Positions 23,983 through 30,245 of a DNA stretch of 57,176 bases are shown here, piece by piece. This DNA is from Erysipelotrichaceae bacterium 7770_A6. Lineage in GTDB: Bacteria; Bacillota_I; Bacilli_A; Erysipelotrichales; Erysipelotrichaceae. Location of the stretch: NCBI GenBank assembly GCA_014610835.1, contig QQXM01000017.1:1-57176 (forward strand), given 5' to 3'. Each line of letters starts with the position of its first letter. The first letter of the stretch is position 1. The notes below the pieces were generated by a model. That model searched no databases, was not told where the DNA came from, and saw only the letters and a list, made by a program, of their open reading frames with translations. Both the position numbers and the translations under genes were made by a program.

Positions 23983-24969
23983 ATGGCAAAGATTACAATT
24001 GATGATATCGCAAAAAAAGTGAATGTAAGCAAAAGTACAGTTTCTCGTTATTTAAATGGAGGAAGTGTCAAAGCAAGTACAAGAGAAAAAATTCAAGAAA
24101 TCGTGGATCAATATGATTATCATCCGAATGCATTTGCAAGATTAAATGCAAAGCAAAGTAGGATGATTGGTGTTATTCTTCCAACGTTGAACTCAAAAGT
24201 AACCTCGCGTGTCATTACAAGTATCGATCGATATCTGAGAGATCGCGATTATGTAACGATTATTCGTAATAGTGATCATGATATTGCGTTAGAATTAGAG
24301 AATTTATCTAGATTAATTAATCTTGGCGTAGATGGTATTGTTTTAAGTTCTATTTCAATCACAGAAGAGCATCATAAACTGATTAATAGTACAAATATAC
24401 CTGTAATTATTTTGGCACAGGAAGATGATCAAGTCCCTTGCATTGTGAATGATGAATATAATGCGGGTAAGTTTATAGGGGAATATATCGGAAAAAAAGG
24501 ACATAAAAAAATTGGCTTTATTACAGTGGATGAAAATGATCGTGCTGTTGGTGTGTTAAGAAAACAGGGCGTTTTGGATGGATTGGAGAAATATTCTGTA
24601 GATTCAATCAATATTGAATACAGTGATTTTAGTTTTGTGGATGCACAGAATGCAACGTGGAAATTATTAACCGAACATAATGATATTGATGCGATCATTT
24701 GTGCAACGGATCGATTAGCATTTGGCGCTTATCGTGTTCTTAGGAAGAATGGATATCATATTCCTTTAGATGTATCTGTTATTGGATTTGGTGGATATGA
24801 AGAGAGTGAGTTGATTGTTCCTGAATTAACAACATTAATGTTTGATTCGTATGAAATGGGAGAACTTGCTGCACAGACAATTACAGATATGATTGAGGGA
24901 CGTGAAGTGAAACAAAAGCAAATTATTCATTATTCATTCATTGAAAGACGAAGTGTGAGTAAACGATAA
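23983..24969 (+). CDS. scrR: LacI-family repressor, probable sucrose regulator
   Basis: 328 residues. The N-terminal helix-turn-helix MAKITIDDIAKKVNVSKSTVSRYLNG is followed by the hinge region and a periplasmic-binding-like effector domain (GVILPTLNSKVTSRV, VIGFGGYEESELIVPELTT). Predicted to bind the two palindromic operators at the promoter of the sucrose PTS gene (25485-25500 and 25544-25557). Sits between the barnase gene and a pRiA4b ORF-3-like gene, 31 bases before the latter. Sucrose specificity is inferred from neighbours; a fructose or other beta-fructoside ligand is possible. Confidence 0.88.
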   Translation: MAKITIDDIAKKVNVSKSTVSRYLNGGSVKASTREKIQEIVDQYDYHPNAFARLNAKQSRMIGVILPTLNSKVTSRVITSIDRYLRDRDYVTIIRNSDHDIALELENLSRLINLGVDGIVLSSISITEEHHKLINSTNIPVIILAQEDDQVPCIVNDEYNAGKFIGEYIGKKGHKKIGFITVDENDRAVGVLRKQGVLDGLEKYSVDSINIEYSDFSFVDAQNATWKLLTEHNDIDAIICATDRLAFGAYRVLRKNGYHIPLDVSVIGFGGYEESELIVPELTTLMFDSYEMGELAAQTITDMIEGREVKQKQIIHYSFIERRSVSKR

Positions 24970-25000
24970 TAAGAAATAAGAGAAGGAGATGAGCTGAAGG

Positions 25001-25414
25001 ATGCGCAAACAGTATTCAATGAAGGTTTATCCTGATGGTAAAGGCCGTGAAGTATATAGAAATATTGAAATTTGTGGTAATAATACATTAGATCAATTGT
25101 GCAAAATAATCATGTATGCATTTGATTTTTTGGATGAGCATTTGTATGAATTTTGTATGGATAATCGTGCGTATAGTGAAAATGCATATCAATCTTGTCC
25201 TGAATGTGATGAACCATCAACAGATATAACTTTGGACGAAGTTGGACTCAGCAAAGGGCAAAAATTTACATTACACTATGATTTTGGAGATGATTGGTTG
25301 TTCAGAATTGCAGTGACGAAAATTAGTGAAGTGCAAGAAGAATCTAAGCCGCGTATTGTTAAGAGTAAAGGTAAAATTCAACAATATCCGGAAAATGATG
25401 ACGTATTTTATTAG
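25001..25414 (+). CDS. Plasmid pRiA4b ORF-3-like protein
   Basis: 137 residues. Belongs to the PRiA4_ORF3 family (PF07929): an N-terminal YSMKVYPDGKGREVYRNIEI, a helix IIMYAFDFLDEHLYEF, and the hallmark FTLHYDFGDDWLFRI. A small cytosolic protein without a known activity; relatives often accompany mobile elements. It carries CPEC in its middle, perhaps a half metal site. Follows the LacI gene by 31 bases with an AAGGAGA ribosome binding site, and is closed by its own terminator, so it is not part of the PTS transcript. Confidence 0.8.
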   Translation: MRKQYSMKVYPDGKGREVYRNIEICGNNTLDQLCKIIMYAFDFLDEHLYEFCMDNRAYSENAYQSCPECDEPSTDITLDEVGLSKGQKFTLHYDFGDDWLFRIAVTKISEVQEESKPRIVKSKGKIQQYPENDDVFY

Positions 25415-25448
25415 GATTTTGTGAAGTTCAAATTATGTCAAAGTTGAT

Positions 25449-25486
25449 AAATACTTTCTCAGGAGTGAGGAAGTATTTATTTTTTT
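25449..25486 (+). terminator. Terminator before the sucrose promoter
   Basis: AAATACTTTCTC (25449-25460) pairs with GAGGAAGTATTT (25467-25478), followed by a T-run to 25486. It isolates the regulator genes from the PTS transcript. Confidence 0.88.
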
Positions 25487-25557
25487 GGAACCGATTTCAA
25501 AAATGTGTTGACAACATAAATAACAAGCTTATAATAGCAATTGTGGAACCGGTTCCA
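25485..25557 (+). promoter_or_regulatory. Sucrose operon promoter with two LacI-type operators
   Basis: TTGACA (25508-25513) and TATAAT (25530-25535), 16-base spacer. Operator 2, TGGAACCGGTTCCA (25544-25557), is a perfect palindrome over the start site; operator 1, TTGGAACCGATTTCAA (25485-25500), is an imperfect copy upstream of the -35. The centre-to-centre spacing is about 58 bases, suitable for loop formation by a LacI-type tetramer. Confidence 0.88.
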
Positions 25558-25576
25558 TTCCGGTGGGAGGAAAATT

Positions 25577-27463
25577 ATGGATTATGTAAGAATCGCACAA
25601 GAAGTAATTGAAAATGTAGGTGGAAAAGAGAATATCATTTCCGTTACACATTGTGCGACAAGATTGAGATTTCAGCTTCGTAACAATCATTTACGCAATG
25701 AAGATGTCATTAGTGATATTGAAGGAGTTAAAGGTGTATTTCTTTCACAGACACAATTTCAGATCATCTTTGGATCTGGTCTTGTAAGTCTTGTATGTGA
25801 TGAAGTGCAGAAACAATTAGGATTTGATACAAATACTGCTGTAGAAGAAACAAAGGAAGAAGGAAATGCATTACAGAGATTTGTAAAGATGTTAAGTGAT
25901 ATCTTTGTTCCAATCATTCCAGCAATCGTTGCAGGTGGTTTGTTGATGGGATTGAATAATGTATTAACAGCCGGCATGTTTGATGGCAGATCCATCATTG
26001 ACATTTATCCACAATGGAATGGATTAGCTACGGCAATCAATACATTTGCGAATGCGCCATTTACATTCTTGCCAGTACTTATCGGCTTTAGTGCTACAAA
26101 GAAATTCGGAGGAAATCCATATTTAGGTGCAGCAATGGGTATGATCATGGTACATCCAGATCTATTGAATGCATATAACATTGGCATTGCAGAACCTCCA
26201 TATTGGAATATTCTCGGATTCAAGATTGCGGCAATCGGTTATCAGGGAACAGTTCTTCCAGTTCTAGCAGTATCATTTATTTTAGCAACAATTGAAAAGA
26301 AGCTTCATAAAGTTACGCCAACATGGCTGGATAACTTAACAACACCAATGTTATCTATTATTGTGACTTCTTTCTTAACATTCATTTTTGTTGGACCGGT
26401 ATTAAGAGAAGCAGGAAATATATTAGCTGCCGGTATTACATGGGGATATAACACACTTGGATTTATTGGTGGTGGATTATTTGGCTTATTCTATGCACCA
26501 ATTTGCTTGACGGGTATGCACCATAGCTTTATTGCGATTGAAACACAGCTTATTGCTGATGTTGCACATACAGGCGGCAGTTTTATTTTCACAACAGCAA
26601 GTATGAATAACGTAGCACAAGGTGCAGCTGTATTAGCAGTATTATTCATGACAAAAAATGAAAAGCTAAAATCAATCTGCTCTGCTTCAGGCGTTTCTGC
26701 ATTACTAGGTATTACAGAACCAGCAATGTTTGGCGTGACTTTAAAACTAAAATATCCATTCTATGCTGCAATGGCAGGATCTGCTGCAGGAAGTGCATAT
26801 TGTGCTGCTACAAAAGTACTTGCACAGGCAATGGGTGCAGCAGGTATTCCAGGTATTATTTCAATGAAACCATCAGATTATGTTAATTTTATGATTGGCT
26901 TAGTATTATCTATGGTTGTTTCTGCAATTCTTACAGCTTTCTTTTTTAAGAAATATGATTTAGATCATGCGGATGAAAAGAAGACAGAAGTTAAAGAAAA
27001 TACAAAAACAGAATTCATTACATCCTGCATGAAAGGTACAGTGAAAGATATCAGCGAAGCAGCAGATGCGGTCTTCTCTTCAAAAGCAATGGGAAATGGC
27101 GTTGTTGTTGAACCAGTCAGCGGAGAAGTTTATGCACCAGTTAGTGGAACAGTAAAAATGATTTTTCCAACACAACATGCGATTGGTTTTGAGAGTGAAG
27201 ATGGTGTAGAAGTATTGATTCATATGGGAATTGATACAGTGAATCTCAATGGAGAAGGATTTACATTATCTGTAAAAGAAGGAGATACTGTTCAGCAGGG
27301 ACAGAAGATTGCTGAGATGGATTTAAATCTAATTAGTGAAAAAGGATACAGCACACAGACTATGTTAGTTGTTACAAAAGCAGACGATAGAAATGTGGAA
27401 ACAATTCCAAATGCATCTGCAGATGTGTCTACAAATGTAATTCATATTGTGGAGAATGTGTAA
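25577..27463 (+). CDS. scrA: PTS sucrose transporter, EIIBCA fusion
   Basis: 628 residues. Imports sucrose (or a related beta-glucoside/fructoside) and phosphorylates it. Domain order: EIIB (residues 1-90) with phosphocysteine Cys26 in THCATRLRF; EIIC (about 105-455), ten or so membrane segments, with GITEPAMFGVTLKLKYPFY; EIIA (about 490-628), with the phosphohistidine His549 in VLIHMGIDTV. Many Bacillota sucrose permeases lack EIIA, so this one is self-contained. Start at 25577 after GGGAGG; the upstream frame reads through the operator. Its stop overlaps the next start by one base. Confidence 0.9.
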   Translation: MDYVRIAQEVIENVGGKENIISVTHCATRLRFQLRNNHLRNEDVISDIEGVKGVFLSQTQFQIIFGSGLVSLVCDEVQKQLGFDTNTAVEETKEEGNALQRFVKMLSDIFVPIIPAIVAGGLLMGLNNVLTAGMFDGRSIIDIYPQWNGLATAINTFANAPFTFLPVLIGFSATKKFGGNPYLGAAMGMIMVHPDLLNAYNIGIAEPPYWNILGFKIAAIGYQGTVLPVLAVSFILATIEKKLHKVTPTWLDNLTTPMLSIIVTSFLTFIFVGPVLREAGNILAAGITWGYNTLGFIGGGLFGLFYAPICLTGMHHSFIAIETQLIADVAHTGGSFIFTTASMNNVAQGAAVLAVLFMTKNEKLKSICSASGVSALLGITEPAMFGVTLKLKYPFYAAMAGSAAGSAYCAATKVLAQAMGAAGIPGIISMKPSDYVNFMIGLVLSMVVSAILTAFFFKKYDLDHADEKKTEVKENTKTEFITSCMKGTVKDISEAADAVFSSKAMGNGVVVEPVSGEVYAPVSGTVKMIFPTQHAIGFESEDGVEVLIHMGIDTVNLNGEGFTLSVKEGDTVQQGQKIAEMDLNLISEKGYSTQTMLVVTKADDRNVETIPNASADVSTNVIHIVENV

Positions 27464-29877
27464 TGATTCAAAAATATTCAAAAGTTACAAAAGAAGATTA
27501 TCGTAACTGGTATCTCGAAAATGGAAAGATGAGAGAGTGCGCTAGAAGTGATAAAAAAAGCTTGAAGTATCATTTGATGCCGGCAAGTGGATGGTTGAAT
27601 GATCCAAATGGGTTACATCAAATGAATGGAGAATATCGTATCTATTATCAATATGATCCATTTGATACAGAAGGTATGATGAAACTTTGGGGATTGTATA
27701 CAACAAAAGATTTTGTTCACTATGAAGAAAAAACACCTGTATTATTCCCTGATCATGAGCTTGATAAGCATGGCGTTTATTCAGGTTCTGCATTTGTTGA
27801 AAATGATACGATTCATTATTTCTACACAGGAAATGTAAAATATTTCGATCGTGAAGACTATGATTATATCAATTCTGGCAGAGGATCAAATACAATTCAT
27901 GTAACAAGCCGTGATGGTGTAACAATGAGTGAAAAGCAATGCGTGCTGAGTAACAAAGATTATCCAGAAGACATGTCATGCCATGTGCGTGATCCTAAAG
28001 TATTTTCTTTGAGTGGAAAGTATTACATGGTTTTAGGTGCAAGAGATCAGCAAGGAAAAGGCCTGGTCTTATTGTATGAATCAGATGATTTAAATACATG
28101 GAAATATAAAAATAGAATCACTACAGAAGTTCCATTTGGATATATGTGGGAATGTCCAGATTTATTTGAATTGAATGGTGAATGGTATTTGACTTGTTGT
28201 CCACAAGGTGTAGAACAGAACGGATTAGATTATGCAAATGTTCATCAGTCCTGCTGGATGAAGATTGATGCTGACTTTGATAACAATCGTTTTGAAGTAA
28301 AAGAAATTCATCAGTTAGATCGTGGTACAGATTTTTATGCACAACAATCTTTTGTGGATGAAAAAGGAAGAAGAATCATGATTGGCTGGTTAGGAATTCC
28401 AGATGCGGATTATACAAATCCAACAGTGGATCATCAATGGCAGCATGCATTAACACTTCCAAGAGAACTTGTTGTGAAGAATGGCAATCTATGCCAGAAA
28501 CCAGTCGATGAGATCTATCAATTACGTGGAAGTCATAAGACATGTTCATTGAACGAGAATGTATCCTGGGAAGAACTACAATATGAATGTGATATGCATT
28601 TTGATATATGCAATACATTTAAGATGCATTTGAGAAAAGGACTAACATTATCATATAAGAATGATGTATTAAAACTATCCTTTGATAAAAATGGATATGG
28701 AAGAAGTGAAAGAGCAGTTCATTGTGGAAAACTAACTGATCTTCAAATCTTTATGGATACGACAAGTGTTGAAATATTTGTGAATGGCGGAAGCAAAGTA
28801 TTTACATGTAGATTCTATGGAATGGAAACAGAATTCTTGTTTGATGGTGAAGCAGAAGGAACAATGGATCTATACCAGATGCATAAATTTTCTGTGAATC
28901 ATACAGAAGAAAAGGGACTTTGTGTTATTGGGGAAGCGTTGATTGATTTTGTGCCTGATGTAAAAGGACTTGCATTAAAAGATGTTCCTTCCTTTCATAG
29001 AGCTGCAGGTGGTGCACCAGCAAATGTTGCGGGTGCAGTAAGCAAGATGGGACTTCCAGCAAAAGTATTAACAAAACTTGGTGAAGATGCTTTTGGGGAT
29101 TATATCGTTGAAACGTTACAAGAAAGTGGAATTGATACTTCTGCAATCTTGCGTGATCGTGAATATGAGACTTCATTAGCTTTTGTATCATTAAGAGAAG
29201 ATGGTAATAGAGACTTTGCTTTCTATAGAAAGAATAGTGCAGATTTGCATCTTACAGAAGAAGAAATTCCAGAGAACATTCTTGATGATTGTGGAATGAT
29301 TCATTTCTGCAGTGTAGACCTTGTGGAATCAAGTATGAAAGAAGCACATCGTAAATTGATTGCGATGGCAAAAGAGAAGGGACTTCTGATCAGCTTTGAT
29401 CCGAACTTAAGACTTTCATTGTGGGAAAGTGAAGAATGTCTTAAAAATACTGTGAAGGAATTTTTACCGTTGGCGGATATTGTAAAGATATCTGATGAGG
29501 AACTGGAGTTCATCACAGGAAAAACAGATATTGAAGAAGCACTTCCAGATTTACTGCAGGGAAATACGAAATGTGTTGTATACACAATGGGAAAAGATGG
29601 CGCTGCAGTATATACAAAAAATCTAAAAGCAGTATCTCGAGGGTATTGCGTAGATGTTGTTGATACGACAGGTGCAGGCGATTCATTTATTGGAGCATTT
29701 GAATATCAATTGTTAAGAGATGGTGTAGAAAATATTGAAGCAGTATCAAAAGAAACATTTGAAGAATATCTGAAATTTGCAAATGCATATGCTGCATATA
29801 CAACGACAAAAGCTGGCGCATTATCCTCTATGGCGAATGCATCTGAAATGAAAGCCTGGTTAAATAAAATTCAATAA
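27463..29877 (+). CDS. Fused sucrose-6-phosphate hydrolase and fructokinase
   Basis: 804 residues in one unbroken frame. Residues 30-475 are a GH32 hydrolase: WLNDPNG with nucleophile Asp47, RDP with Asp177 as transition-state stabiliser, and WECPDL with acid/base Glu230, plus the C-terminal beta-sandwich. Residues from about 485 are a PfkB-family kinase: VIGEALIDFVPD, GGAPANVAGAVSKMG, and DTTGAGDSFIGAF with catalytic Asp740. Sucrose-6-phosphate would be split to glucose-6-phosphate and fructose, and the fructose phosphorylated by the same chain. Normally these are two genes (scrB and scrK). Starts on the last base of the PTS gene stop codon, so it is translationally coupled. Confidence 0.93.
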   Translation: MIQKYSKVTKEDYRNWYLENGKMRECARSDKKSLKYHLMPASGWLNDPNGLHQMNGEYRIYYQYDPFDTEGMMKLWGLYTTKDFVHYEEKTPVLFPDHELDKHGVYSGSAFVENDTIHYFYTGNVKYFDREDYDYINSGRGSNTIHVTSRDGVTMSEKQCVLSNKDYPEDMSCHVRDPKVFSLSGKYYMVLGARDQQGKGLVLLYESDDLNTWKYKNRITTEVPFGYMWECPDLFELNGEWYLTCCPQGVEQNGLDYANVHQSCWMKIDADFDNNRFEVKEIHQLDRGTDFYAQQSFVDEKGRRIMIGWLGIPDADYTNPTVDHQWQHALTLPRELVVKNGNLCQKPVDEIYQLRGSHKTCSLNENVSWEELQYECDMHFDICNTFKMHLRKGLTLSYKNDVLKLSFDKNGYGRSERAVHCGKLTDLQIFMDTTSVEIFVNGGSKVFTCRFYGMETEFLFDGEAEGTMDLYQMHKFSVNHTEEKGLCVIGEALIDFVPDVKGLALKDVPSFHRAAGGAPANVAGAVSKMGLPAKVLTKLGEDAFGDYIVETLQESGIDTSAILRDREYETSLAFVSLREDGNRDFAFYRKNSADLHLTEEEIPENILDDCGMIHFCSVDLVESSMKEAHRKLIAMAKEKGLLISFDPNLRLSLWESEECLKNTVKEFLPLADIVKISDEELEFITGKTDIEEALPDLLQGNTKCVVYTMGKDGAAVYTKNLKAVSRGYCVDVVDTTGAGDSFIGAFEYQLLRDGVENIEAVSKETFEEYLKFANAYAAYTTTKAGALSSMANASEMKAWLNKIQ

Positions 29878-29883
29878 ACAATG

Positions 29884-29915
29884 AATCATGTATCAAAACA
29901 GGTACATGATTTTTT
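29884..29915 (+). terminator. Terminator of the sucrose operon
   Basis: AATCATGTA (29884-29892) pairs with TACATGATT (29903-29911) and is followed by a T-run. Confidence 0.88.
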
Positions 29916-29957: not shown

Positions 29958-30245
29958 ATGAATAGTGAATATGATAAGACAATATATTTAATCGGAAATG
30001 AAATTGAAAATAAAGAGAAGACAATTTACTATTTCAAATCAGAGTTTGATTTACCTTCTTATACAGGAAATACATTGGATGCAATTGCGGATAGTTTATC
30101 AGAAGTGAAAGATCGAGTAGAAATATTATTAACGAAAGAGAATATCAGGTATATATGTGATCATTCTTATGCATTTAAAGTGCTGATGATGCTTGGAAAT
30201 GCTGTGAATGAGAACCCGAATTTACATATTTTCTTTAGAGAGTGA
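29958..30245 (+). CDS. Barstar-like ribonuclease inhibitor
   Basis: 95 residues. Resembles barstar (PF01337): after a beta strand IYLIGN and a helix, FDLPSYTGNTLDAIADSL matches barstar's inhibitory helix region, keeping Tyr35, Gly37, Leu40-Asp41-Ala42 and Asp45 (barstar Y29, G31, L34-D35-A36, D39); barstar Trp38 is Ala here. No signal peptide, so it is cytosolic and would protect the cell from the barnase-like enzyme encoded at 23511. It has its own ribosome binding site (GGTGG), follows the sucrose terminator, and ends in another terminator, so it is expressed separately from the RNase. Confidence 0.82.
   Translation: MNSEYDKTIYLIGNEIENKEKTIYYFKSEFDLPSYTGNTLDAIADSLSEVKDRVEILLTKENIRYICDHSYAFKVLMMLGNAVNENPNLHIFFRE

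What the first reader, a model, noticed from the sequence alone, without database searches (positions are those of the whole stretch)
27463..29877. One-chain sucrose-6-phosphate hydrolase/fructokinase
A complete GH32 domain and a complete PfkB domain, both with intact catalytic residues, are read as one 804-residue protein. Together with a self-contained EIIBCA permease, two genes cover uptake to fructose-6-phosphate, perhaps with channelling of fructose.
Basis: partly seen in the sequence, partly recalled or inferred. Interest (0 to 1): 0.5.

Follow-up and report, generated by a model that had tools for sequence, protein, structure and literature searches.

The report
Fused sucrose-phosphate hydrolase and fructokinase
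A bacterium appears to make two consecutive sugar-breakdown enzymes as one protein, by joining two genes that are separate neighbours in its relatives; the same join seems to have arisen several times elsewhere, so it is a real but modest variation on a well-known pathway.

Summary
ORF 27463-29877 (804 aa) carries a GH32 sucrose-6-phosphate hydrolase (ScrB; residues 37-453) and a PfkB fructokinase (ScrK; 486-790), conserved residues intact in both. It follows a sucrose-type EIIBCA gene, overlapping it by one base, under a consensus-perfect promoter flanked by two LacI-type operator-like sites and ahead of a terminator. So two genes, with HPr and EI from elsewhere, should run from sucrose to glucose-6-phosphate and fructose-6-phosphate (inferred).

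It is an in-place fusion of a conserved scrB-scrK pair. The nearest relatives (Anaerostipes, another Lachnospiraceae) have the genes overlapping out of frame. Eight members of the window's family have them in one frame, split by one stop. The cassette was probably acquired horizontally.

The architecture is not unique. One-chain ScrB-ScrK occurs in 6 of 80 named loci (Clostridia MAGs) and in four genomes read with TGA=Trp (mollicute-like). A single clade for the window and Clostridia fusions is rejected. One Clostridia locus repeats the layout: EIIBCA overlapping a fused ScrBK.

Channelling is untested. A free kinase from an internal start, or a one-base error at the junction, is not excluded; I had no reads or second assembly. 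Ordinary chemistry, new architecture variant, modest interest.

The parts
27463..29877 (+). one-chain ScrB-ScrK, 804 aa
27463..28884 (+). GH32 sucrose-6-phosphate hydrolase moiety (residues 1-474)
   Evidence: scrB_fam 414.7 bits over a cut-off of 356.4; S6PH pattern N46 D47 Q63 G71 K74 S107 R176 D177 E230
28885..28917 (+). junction of 11 codons; in relatives this stretch holds the scrB stop, the scrK ATG and usually a Shine-Dalgarno
   Evidence: modelled pLDDT 88 (471-480) and 84 (481-490)
28918..29877 (+). PfkB fructokinase moiety (residues 486-804)
   Evidence: PfkB 219.8 bits; best NCBIfam match fructokinase NF006957, 224 bits, below its cut-off of 450, as in two split relatives
25577..27463 (+). 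sucrose-type PTS EIIBCA
   Evidence: TIGR01996 576 bits over a cut-off of 559.3, EIIA 165.8 bits; TAA overlaps the fusion's ATG
25508..25535 (+). promoter-like TTGACA-16-TATAAT, 12 of 12 matches
   Evidence: promoter-like sites as a whole are not above shuffles (29 found, mean 38.8), so the case rests on the perfect match and its place
25486..25499 (+). second LacI-type operator-like site, 2 mismatches
   Evidence: weak alone: 9 of 100 shuffles reach the 3 matches found at up to 3 mismatches
25544..25557 (+). palindromic LacI-type operator-like site TGGAACCGGTTCCA, the only place in the genome at up to 1 mismatch
29883..29912 (+). intrinsic-terminator-like site after the fusion
   Evidence: 7 such sites found, 2.9 expected
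23983..24969 (+). LacI-family regulator, probable scr repressor
   Evidence: every NCBIfam regulator model listed is below its cut-off, so specificity is inferred from position
25446..25481 (+). terminator-like site that separates the upstream genes from the scr unit

Best explanation
The gene encodes a bifunctional single chain. The LacI-type regulator releases the promoter when sucrose (or a short fructan such as kestose) is available. EIIBCA imports the sugar and phosphorylates it. The GH32 half hydrolyses the 6-phosphate to glucose-6-phosphate and fructose, and the PfkB half phosphorylates that fructose to fructose-6-phosphate with ATP. The chain arose in place, by loss of the stop and start between scrB and scrK in a probably horizontally acquired scr cassette. 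Shown here: the open frame, both domains, intact conserved residues, promoter-, operator- and terminator-like sites, split relatives, and independent fusions elsewhere. Inferred: both activities, substrate, induction, acquisition, and that the chain is not cut or supplemented by a separate kinase. The most likely benefit is fixed 1:1 synthesis with co-location. True channelling is not shown.
For: Domains and cut-offs. Conserved sites kept. S6PH pattern. Fold matches: 6nu7 S6PH first, 3lki fructokinase as the best kinase. Operon signals. HPr and EI in the genome. Split relatives, in-frame with one stop or overlapping. One-chain forms in 6 of 80 named loci and in 4 mollicute-like genomes. One clade for the window and the six Clostridia fusions rejected, p-AU 8e-54 (I named this group by its trait after two single-domain trees had been seen).
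Against: No activity data. The kinase scores below the NCBIfam fructokinase cut-off (224 against 450), though the stand-alone kinases of two relatives do too (218.7, 217.8). An internal ATG at 28864 has a Shine-Dalgarno as good as the gene's own. A one-base error near 28885-28894 could hide a split pair. pTM 0.67 leaves the domain arrangement open. The GH32 half has a longer end branch (0.66) than its three Lachnospiraceae sisters (0.25-0.35). G+C and third-position G+C of the cassette are close to those of its non-ribosomal neighbours, so composition gives no support for recent acquisition. In PMC7833758 one of the five cluster-2 enzymes (A.butyraticus-GH32-2) degraded none of sucrose, kestose and nystose.
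Confidence: 0.8

Rival explanations
1. The mRNA makes the fusion and also a free kinase of about 337 residues from an internal start (ATG 28864), so the cell has both forms.
For: ATG 28864 is preceded by AGAAGGA, duplex energy -6.2 kcal/mol, the strongest of 52 internal start-type codons. It is similar to the fusion's own start (-6.4) and to two relatives' scrK starts (-5.7).
Against: It is best by a hair: the next internal codons have -6.1 and -5.8. The spacing to the ATG is only about 3 bases. The Met lies in the GH32 C-terminal strand, where the three nearest relatives also have Met. No start codon stands at the usual scrK place.
Confidence: 0.15
2. Assembly or sequencing error has merged two separate genes.
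For: Assembly of 233 contigs. The three nearest relatives have the genes overlapping out of frame, and their junctions are only 2, 4 and 7 bases longer. A stop stands in each of the other two frames (TAA 28884, TGA 28895), the TGA overlapping a GTG in the kinase frame, and the stretch holds a run of four T.
Against: The kinase would then have to start at ATG 28864, ATG 28879 or GTG 28894, all upstream of the usual place; GTG 28894 has no Shine-Dalgarno (0.4 kcal/mol). The GH32 frame matches its relatives up to the junction. The same architecture is in six named MAGs and in mollicute-like genomes, two of them single-contig (G387, G639).
Confidence: 0.07
3. The true substrate is a 6-phosphorylated short fructan (kestose) or another fructoside, with sucrose secondary.
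For: The closest relatives are Anaerostipes-type scr loci. PMC7833758 (passages and section 7 seen) reports that genes for A. [quoted passage not shown]
Against: The EII passes the sucrose-specific IIBC cut-off. Those three enzymes prefer sucrose.
Confidence: 0.15

Closest known systems
Separate ScrB (TIGR01322; L. gasseri S6PH, PDB 6nu7) and ScrK of PTS sucrose operons
   Same: Both domains, gene order scrB-scrK as in many relatives here, EII partner, S6PH residue pattern
   Different: Here one polypeptide; the stop and scrK start are lost
Anaerostipes / Lachnospiraceae scr loci L095, L098, L100
   Same: Closest sequences found: 62% over 769 columns for L095, kinase 68% over 317 columns for L100
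   Different: Genes overlap out of frame, two proteins
One-chain ScrB-ScrK in Clostridia MAGs (L087, L088, L090, L091, L094, L101) and mollicute-like genomes (G387, G393, G494, G639)
   Same: Same domain order in one frame; in L088 EIIBCA also overlaps the fusion (by four bases, ATGA)
   Different: Separate lineages with different junctions; mollicute-like forms need TGA=Trp; in G393 the PfkB half is weak (48.7 bits)
PfkB kinases fused to neighbouring-step enzymes (NCBIfam NF047869 IolC-aldolase, NF041633 KDPG aldolase-sugar kinase)
   Same: A PfkB kinase joined to the enzyme next to it in the pathway
   Different: Partner is an aldolase there, a GH32 hydrolase here (names)

Membership tests
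Sucrose-6-phosphate hydrolase (ScrB, GH32) | TIGR01322 above cut-off | tested here: met
   412.4 and 414.7 against 356.4 bits
Sucrose-6-phosphate hydrolase (ScrB, GH32) | Catalytic Asp, RDP, EC and the S6PH residues of PMC7833758 Table 3, including Lys74 | tested here: met
   N46 D47 Q63 G71 K74 S107 R176 D177 E230
Sucrose-6-phosphate hydrolase (ScrB, GH32) | Hydrolysis of sucrose-6-phosphate | not testable with these tools
   needs assay
Fructokinase ScrK (PfkB) | PfkB domain with DTTGAGD motif and conserved residues | tested here: met
   PfkB 219.8 bits; 39 of 39 sites; Asp740 as the catalytic base is recalled
Fructokinase ScrK (PfkB) | NCBIfam fructokinase equivalog NF006957 above cut-off | tested here: not met
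   224 against 450 bits; two stand-alone relatives (218.7, 217.8) also fail, so the model seems narrower than the clade. I call it a PfkB fructokinase by context and best match, not an NF006957 equivalog
Sucrose-specific PTS EII | TIGR01996 above cut-off, with EIIA | tested here: met
   576 against 559.3; PTBA 144.1 against 97.5
Channelling bifunctional enzyme | Transfer of fructose between sites without release | not testable with these tools
   pTM 0.67; no model coordinates were in the data folder

The most novel reading that the evidence does not exclude
ScrB-ScrK fusion is a repeated, selected end point. At least three lineages independently joined the pair with a short junction because apposition of the two sites, or forced 1:1 assembly on the kinase dimer, raises flux or keeps free fructose low when EIIBCA delivers sucrose-6-phosphate. 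EIIBCA + ScrBK would then be a minimal two-gene sucrose module that evolves repeatedly.
Probability: 0.2. Interest if true: 0.55.

Novelty: new variant of a known kind. Interest (0 to 1): 0.32.

Why it matters
It gives a natural one-chain enzyme for two consecutive steps, with related two-chain versions and independent one-chain versions for comparison. That is a ready set for testing whether fusion changes flux, stoichiometry or fructose leakage. It may also be a compact part for engineering sucrose use. The chemistry itself is ordinary.

Tried and rejected
Triple fusion in G078 (open frame of 1166 aa reported): rejected. It holds three separate ORFs, GH32, a 347-aa ORF and the kinase. G119 and G181: G119 has separate ORFs. 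G181 reads open in most frames, which I take (not checked) for masked or N-filled sequence. G491 and G662 (mollicute-like) were checked as possible fusions: G491 has two overlapping ORFs. In G662 a 942-aa ORF holds GH32 but no PfkB by BLAST or Pfam, although the first search matched it as far as query residue 672. L022-L025, L085, L089, L107 and L131 look fused only if TGA is read as Trp; I did not count them. TTG 25541 as the EII start: rejected for ATG 25577.

The one-base error scenario is spelled out, and for it I raised that rival from 0.05 to 0.07 and lowered the best explanation from 0.82 to 0.80.

Literature: five searches showed no paper naming a ScrB-ScrK or GH32-PfkB fusion in the titles and abstract openings listed (20 of 31, 20 of 62, 19 of 19, 6 of 6 and 7 of 7 papers). 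One paper (PMC7833758) was seen in passages and section 7. The library lacks most subscription journals, so this is weak evidence of absence.

Limits: the phylum search sampled 392 genomes with cut-off E 1e-70 and scored at most 2 candidates a genome. The order search used the same cut-off, and the family and order searches scored at most 3 candidates a genome; the family list of matches was cut short. In-frame pairs are probably over-represented there because spanning matches score best. Trees are quick trees (SH-aLRT only) of 73 rows, after seven duplicate loci and GH-only rows were dropped. The concatenated tree dropped 18 further distant rows, all mollicute-like ones among them. G393 (L077), G491 and G662 were not in the trees. 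One structure job of two was used.
Full report
What is there. The ORF 27463-29877 on the + strand encodes 804 residues from an ATG. Pfam places GH32N at 37-347, GH32C at 373-453 and PfkB at 486-790. NCBIfam assigns the first half to sucrose-6-phosphate hydrolase above cut-off, 412.4 against 356.4 bits. The second half matches fructokinase NF006957 best, but below its cut-off (224 against 450). The stand-alone kinases of G201 and Anaerostipes hominis also fall below it (218.7 and 217.8), so the shortfall is not peculiar to the fusion.

Are both halves intact? Against 72 other rows, 38 of 38 GH32 sites and 39 of 39 kinase sites that are at least 95% conserved are kept. At the 85% level the window departs at 3 of 64 GH32 sites and 1 of 60 kinase sites, within the range of the other rows. 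Its GH32 end branch (0.66) is longer than those of its three Lachnospiraceae sisters (0.25-0.35). PMC7833758 Table 3 lists nine positions that separate sucrose-6-phosphate hydrolases from plain fructofuranosidases. The window has the S6PH (cluster 2) pattern at all nine, including Lys74. In that paper three of five cluster-2 enzymes were active on sucrose in the assay and one was inactive on all three sugars tried. The AlphaFold2 model has mean pLDDT 86.3 with an ordered junction, but pTM 0.67, so the relative placement of the domains is uncertain. Its best PDB match is the L. gasseri S6PH 6nu7, and the best kinase match is the Xylella fructokinase 3lki. None of the 50 matches listed is longer than 634 residues or named as both.

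Operon. A terminator-like site at 25446-25481 is followed by a consensus-perfect promoter at 25508-25535. Promoter-like sites as a whole are not above shuffles (29 found, 38.8 expected), terminator-like ones are (7 against 2.9). Two LacI-type palindromes flank the promoter (25486-25499 with 2 mismatches, 25544-25557 perfect); a third match with 3 mismatches lies inside the EII gene, and 9 of 100 shuffles give as many matches at that looseness. The perfect one is the only place in the genome at up to one mismatch. EIIBCA starts at ATG 25577 with a strong Shine-Dalgarno. Its TAA overlaps the fusion's ATG by one base. A terminator-like site follows at 29883-29912. HPr and enzyme I lie elsewhere in the genome. 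A second GH32 and a second PfkB kinase also exist, so the fusion is not the only source of either fold.

How it arose. In 7 family members at 51-56% identity and one at 39%, scrB and scrK lie in the same frame, parted by one stop and a few codons before the scrK ATG. Other family members have the pair in another frame (G203; G174) or further apart. In the nearest relatives by both domain trees, Anaerostipes and another Lachnospiraceae, the genes overlap out of frame. In the window the junction reads on, with no stop and no start codon at the usual kinase place. It is 36 bases long against 38, 40 and 43 in those nearest relatives and 45 and 48 in G201 and G081. A one-base error between about 28885 and 28894 could still make a split pair look fused, with the kinase then starting at ATG 28864, ATG 28879 or GTG 28894. 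I judge this unlikely, not excluded.

Acquisition. The grouping with Lachnospiraceae has SH-aLRT 89 in the kinase tree, below the starred level; the seven-row group that adds G201-G203 has 99 in the GH32 tree. The three congeners with the next best matches (G007, G036, G037) fall elsewhere in both trees. In 5 of 29 congener loci examined, the 147-aa gene and the barstar-like gene upstream of rpsJ are neighbours, whereas the window has LacI, PRiA4, EII and the fusion between them. The other 24 loci did not show both genes in the stretch held. Base composition of the cassette is close to that of its non-ribosomal neighbours, so it gives no support. I infer that the cassette was acquired and inserted here.

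Is it unique? In the order search (315 genomes) only the window's genome had a stop-free match across both halves among the rows listed. Elsewhere it recurs. Of 80 named loci, 6 have both domains in one table-11 frame: L087, L088, L090, L091, L094, L101, all Clostridia MAGs. Four genomes of one other family have it when TGA is read as Trp: G387, G639, G494, G393. Pfam finds both domains in all four, but the PfkB half of G393 is weak (48.7 bits), and that genome has another kinase gene. The state fused/split changes at least 3 times on the GH32 tree and 5 times on the kinase tree of 73 rows, and twice on a 55-row tree of both domains, where one clade for the window and the six Clostridia fusions is rejected (p-AU 8e-54). 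L088 repeats the window's layout: EIIBCA overlaps the fusion, here by four bases (ATGA), with enzyme I after it. In L091 the fusion lies among housekeeping genes, with no transporter among the neighbours tested. Five of the six Clostridia fusions have Arg for Lys74. On plasmids, 41 of 1835 matching records cover at least 80% of the query. Of the 15 listed, 14 carry two or more annotated genes under the match and one carries none.

How it works. By established ScrA-ScrB-ScrK biochemistry (recalled), the EII yields sucrose-6-phosphate, the GH32 half yields glucose-6-phosphate and fructose, and the kinase half makes fructose-6-phosphate. The fusion most simply fixes a 1:1 ratio. Channelling is possible but nothing here tests it. 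The internal ATG at 28864 has the strongest Shine-Dalgarno of 52 internal candidates, though only just (-6.2, next -6.1), so a minor free kinase cannot be excluded.

Novelty. Fusion of consecutive pathway enzymes is a known kind, and PfkB fusions to neighbouring-step enzymes already have NCBIfam models. I found no paper naming a GH32-PfkB fusion in the listings of five searches, and among the solved chains shown (60 of 103 by sequence, 50 by fold) none is named as both. I file it as a new variant of a known kind.

Noticed in passing
window 23983-29877: The whole scr cassette (LacI, PRiA4-ORF3-like gene, EIIBCA, fusion) sits between a 147-aa gene and a barstar-like gene that are neighbours in 5 of 29 congener loci; its enzymes are closest to Lachnospiraceae. 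It lies in the stretch between tuf and rpsJ.
   Followed up: partly
L088 3025-9194: An independent locus with EIIBCA overlapping a fused ScrBK by four bases (ATGA), followed by PTS enzyme I.
   Followed up: partly
L063, L064, L077, L078: Mollicute-like genomes with one-chain ScrB-ScrK when TGA is read as Trp; other genomes of the same family have split genes. In G393 (L077) the kinase half is weak, and a separate kinase gene exists.
   Followed up: partly
L087, L090, L091, L094, L101: Five Clostridia fusions share a junction (LRLNDTL.AIGEALIDF) and have Arg in place of Lys74 of S6PH; in L091 the gene lies among housekeeping genes.
   Followed up: no
L083 1393-4218: In G662 a 942-aa ORF (TGA=Trp) has GH32 at its start and over 400 further residues without a Pfam match.
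   Followed up: no
window 29958-30245: Barstar-like protein upstream of rpsJ (Pfam 29.6 bits); I did not look for a barnase partner.
   Followed up: no
window 25001-25414: PRiA4_ORF3-like gene between the LacI regulator and the EII promoter; role unknown.
   Followed up: no
L069 2558-3598: In G078 a 347-aa ORF lies between scrB and scrK; a regulator is a guess, not tested.
   Followed up: no
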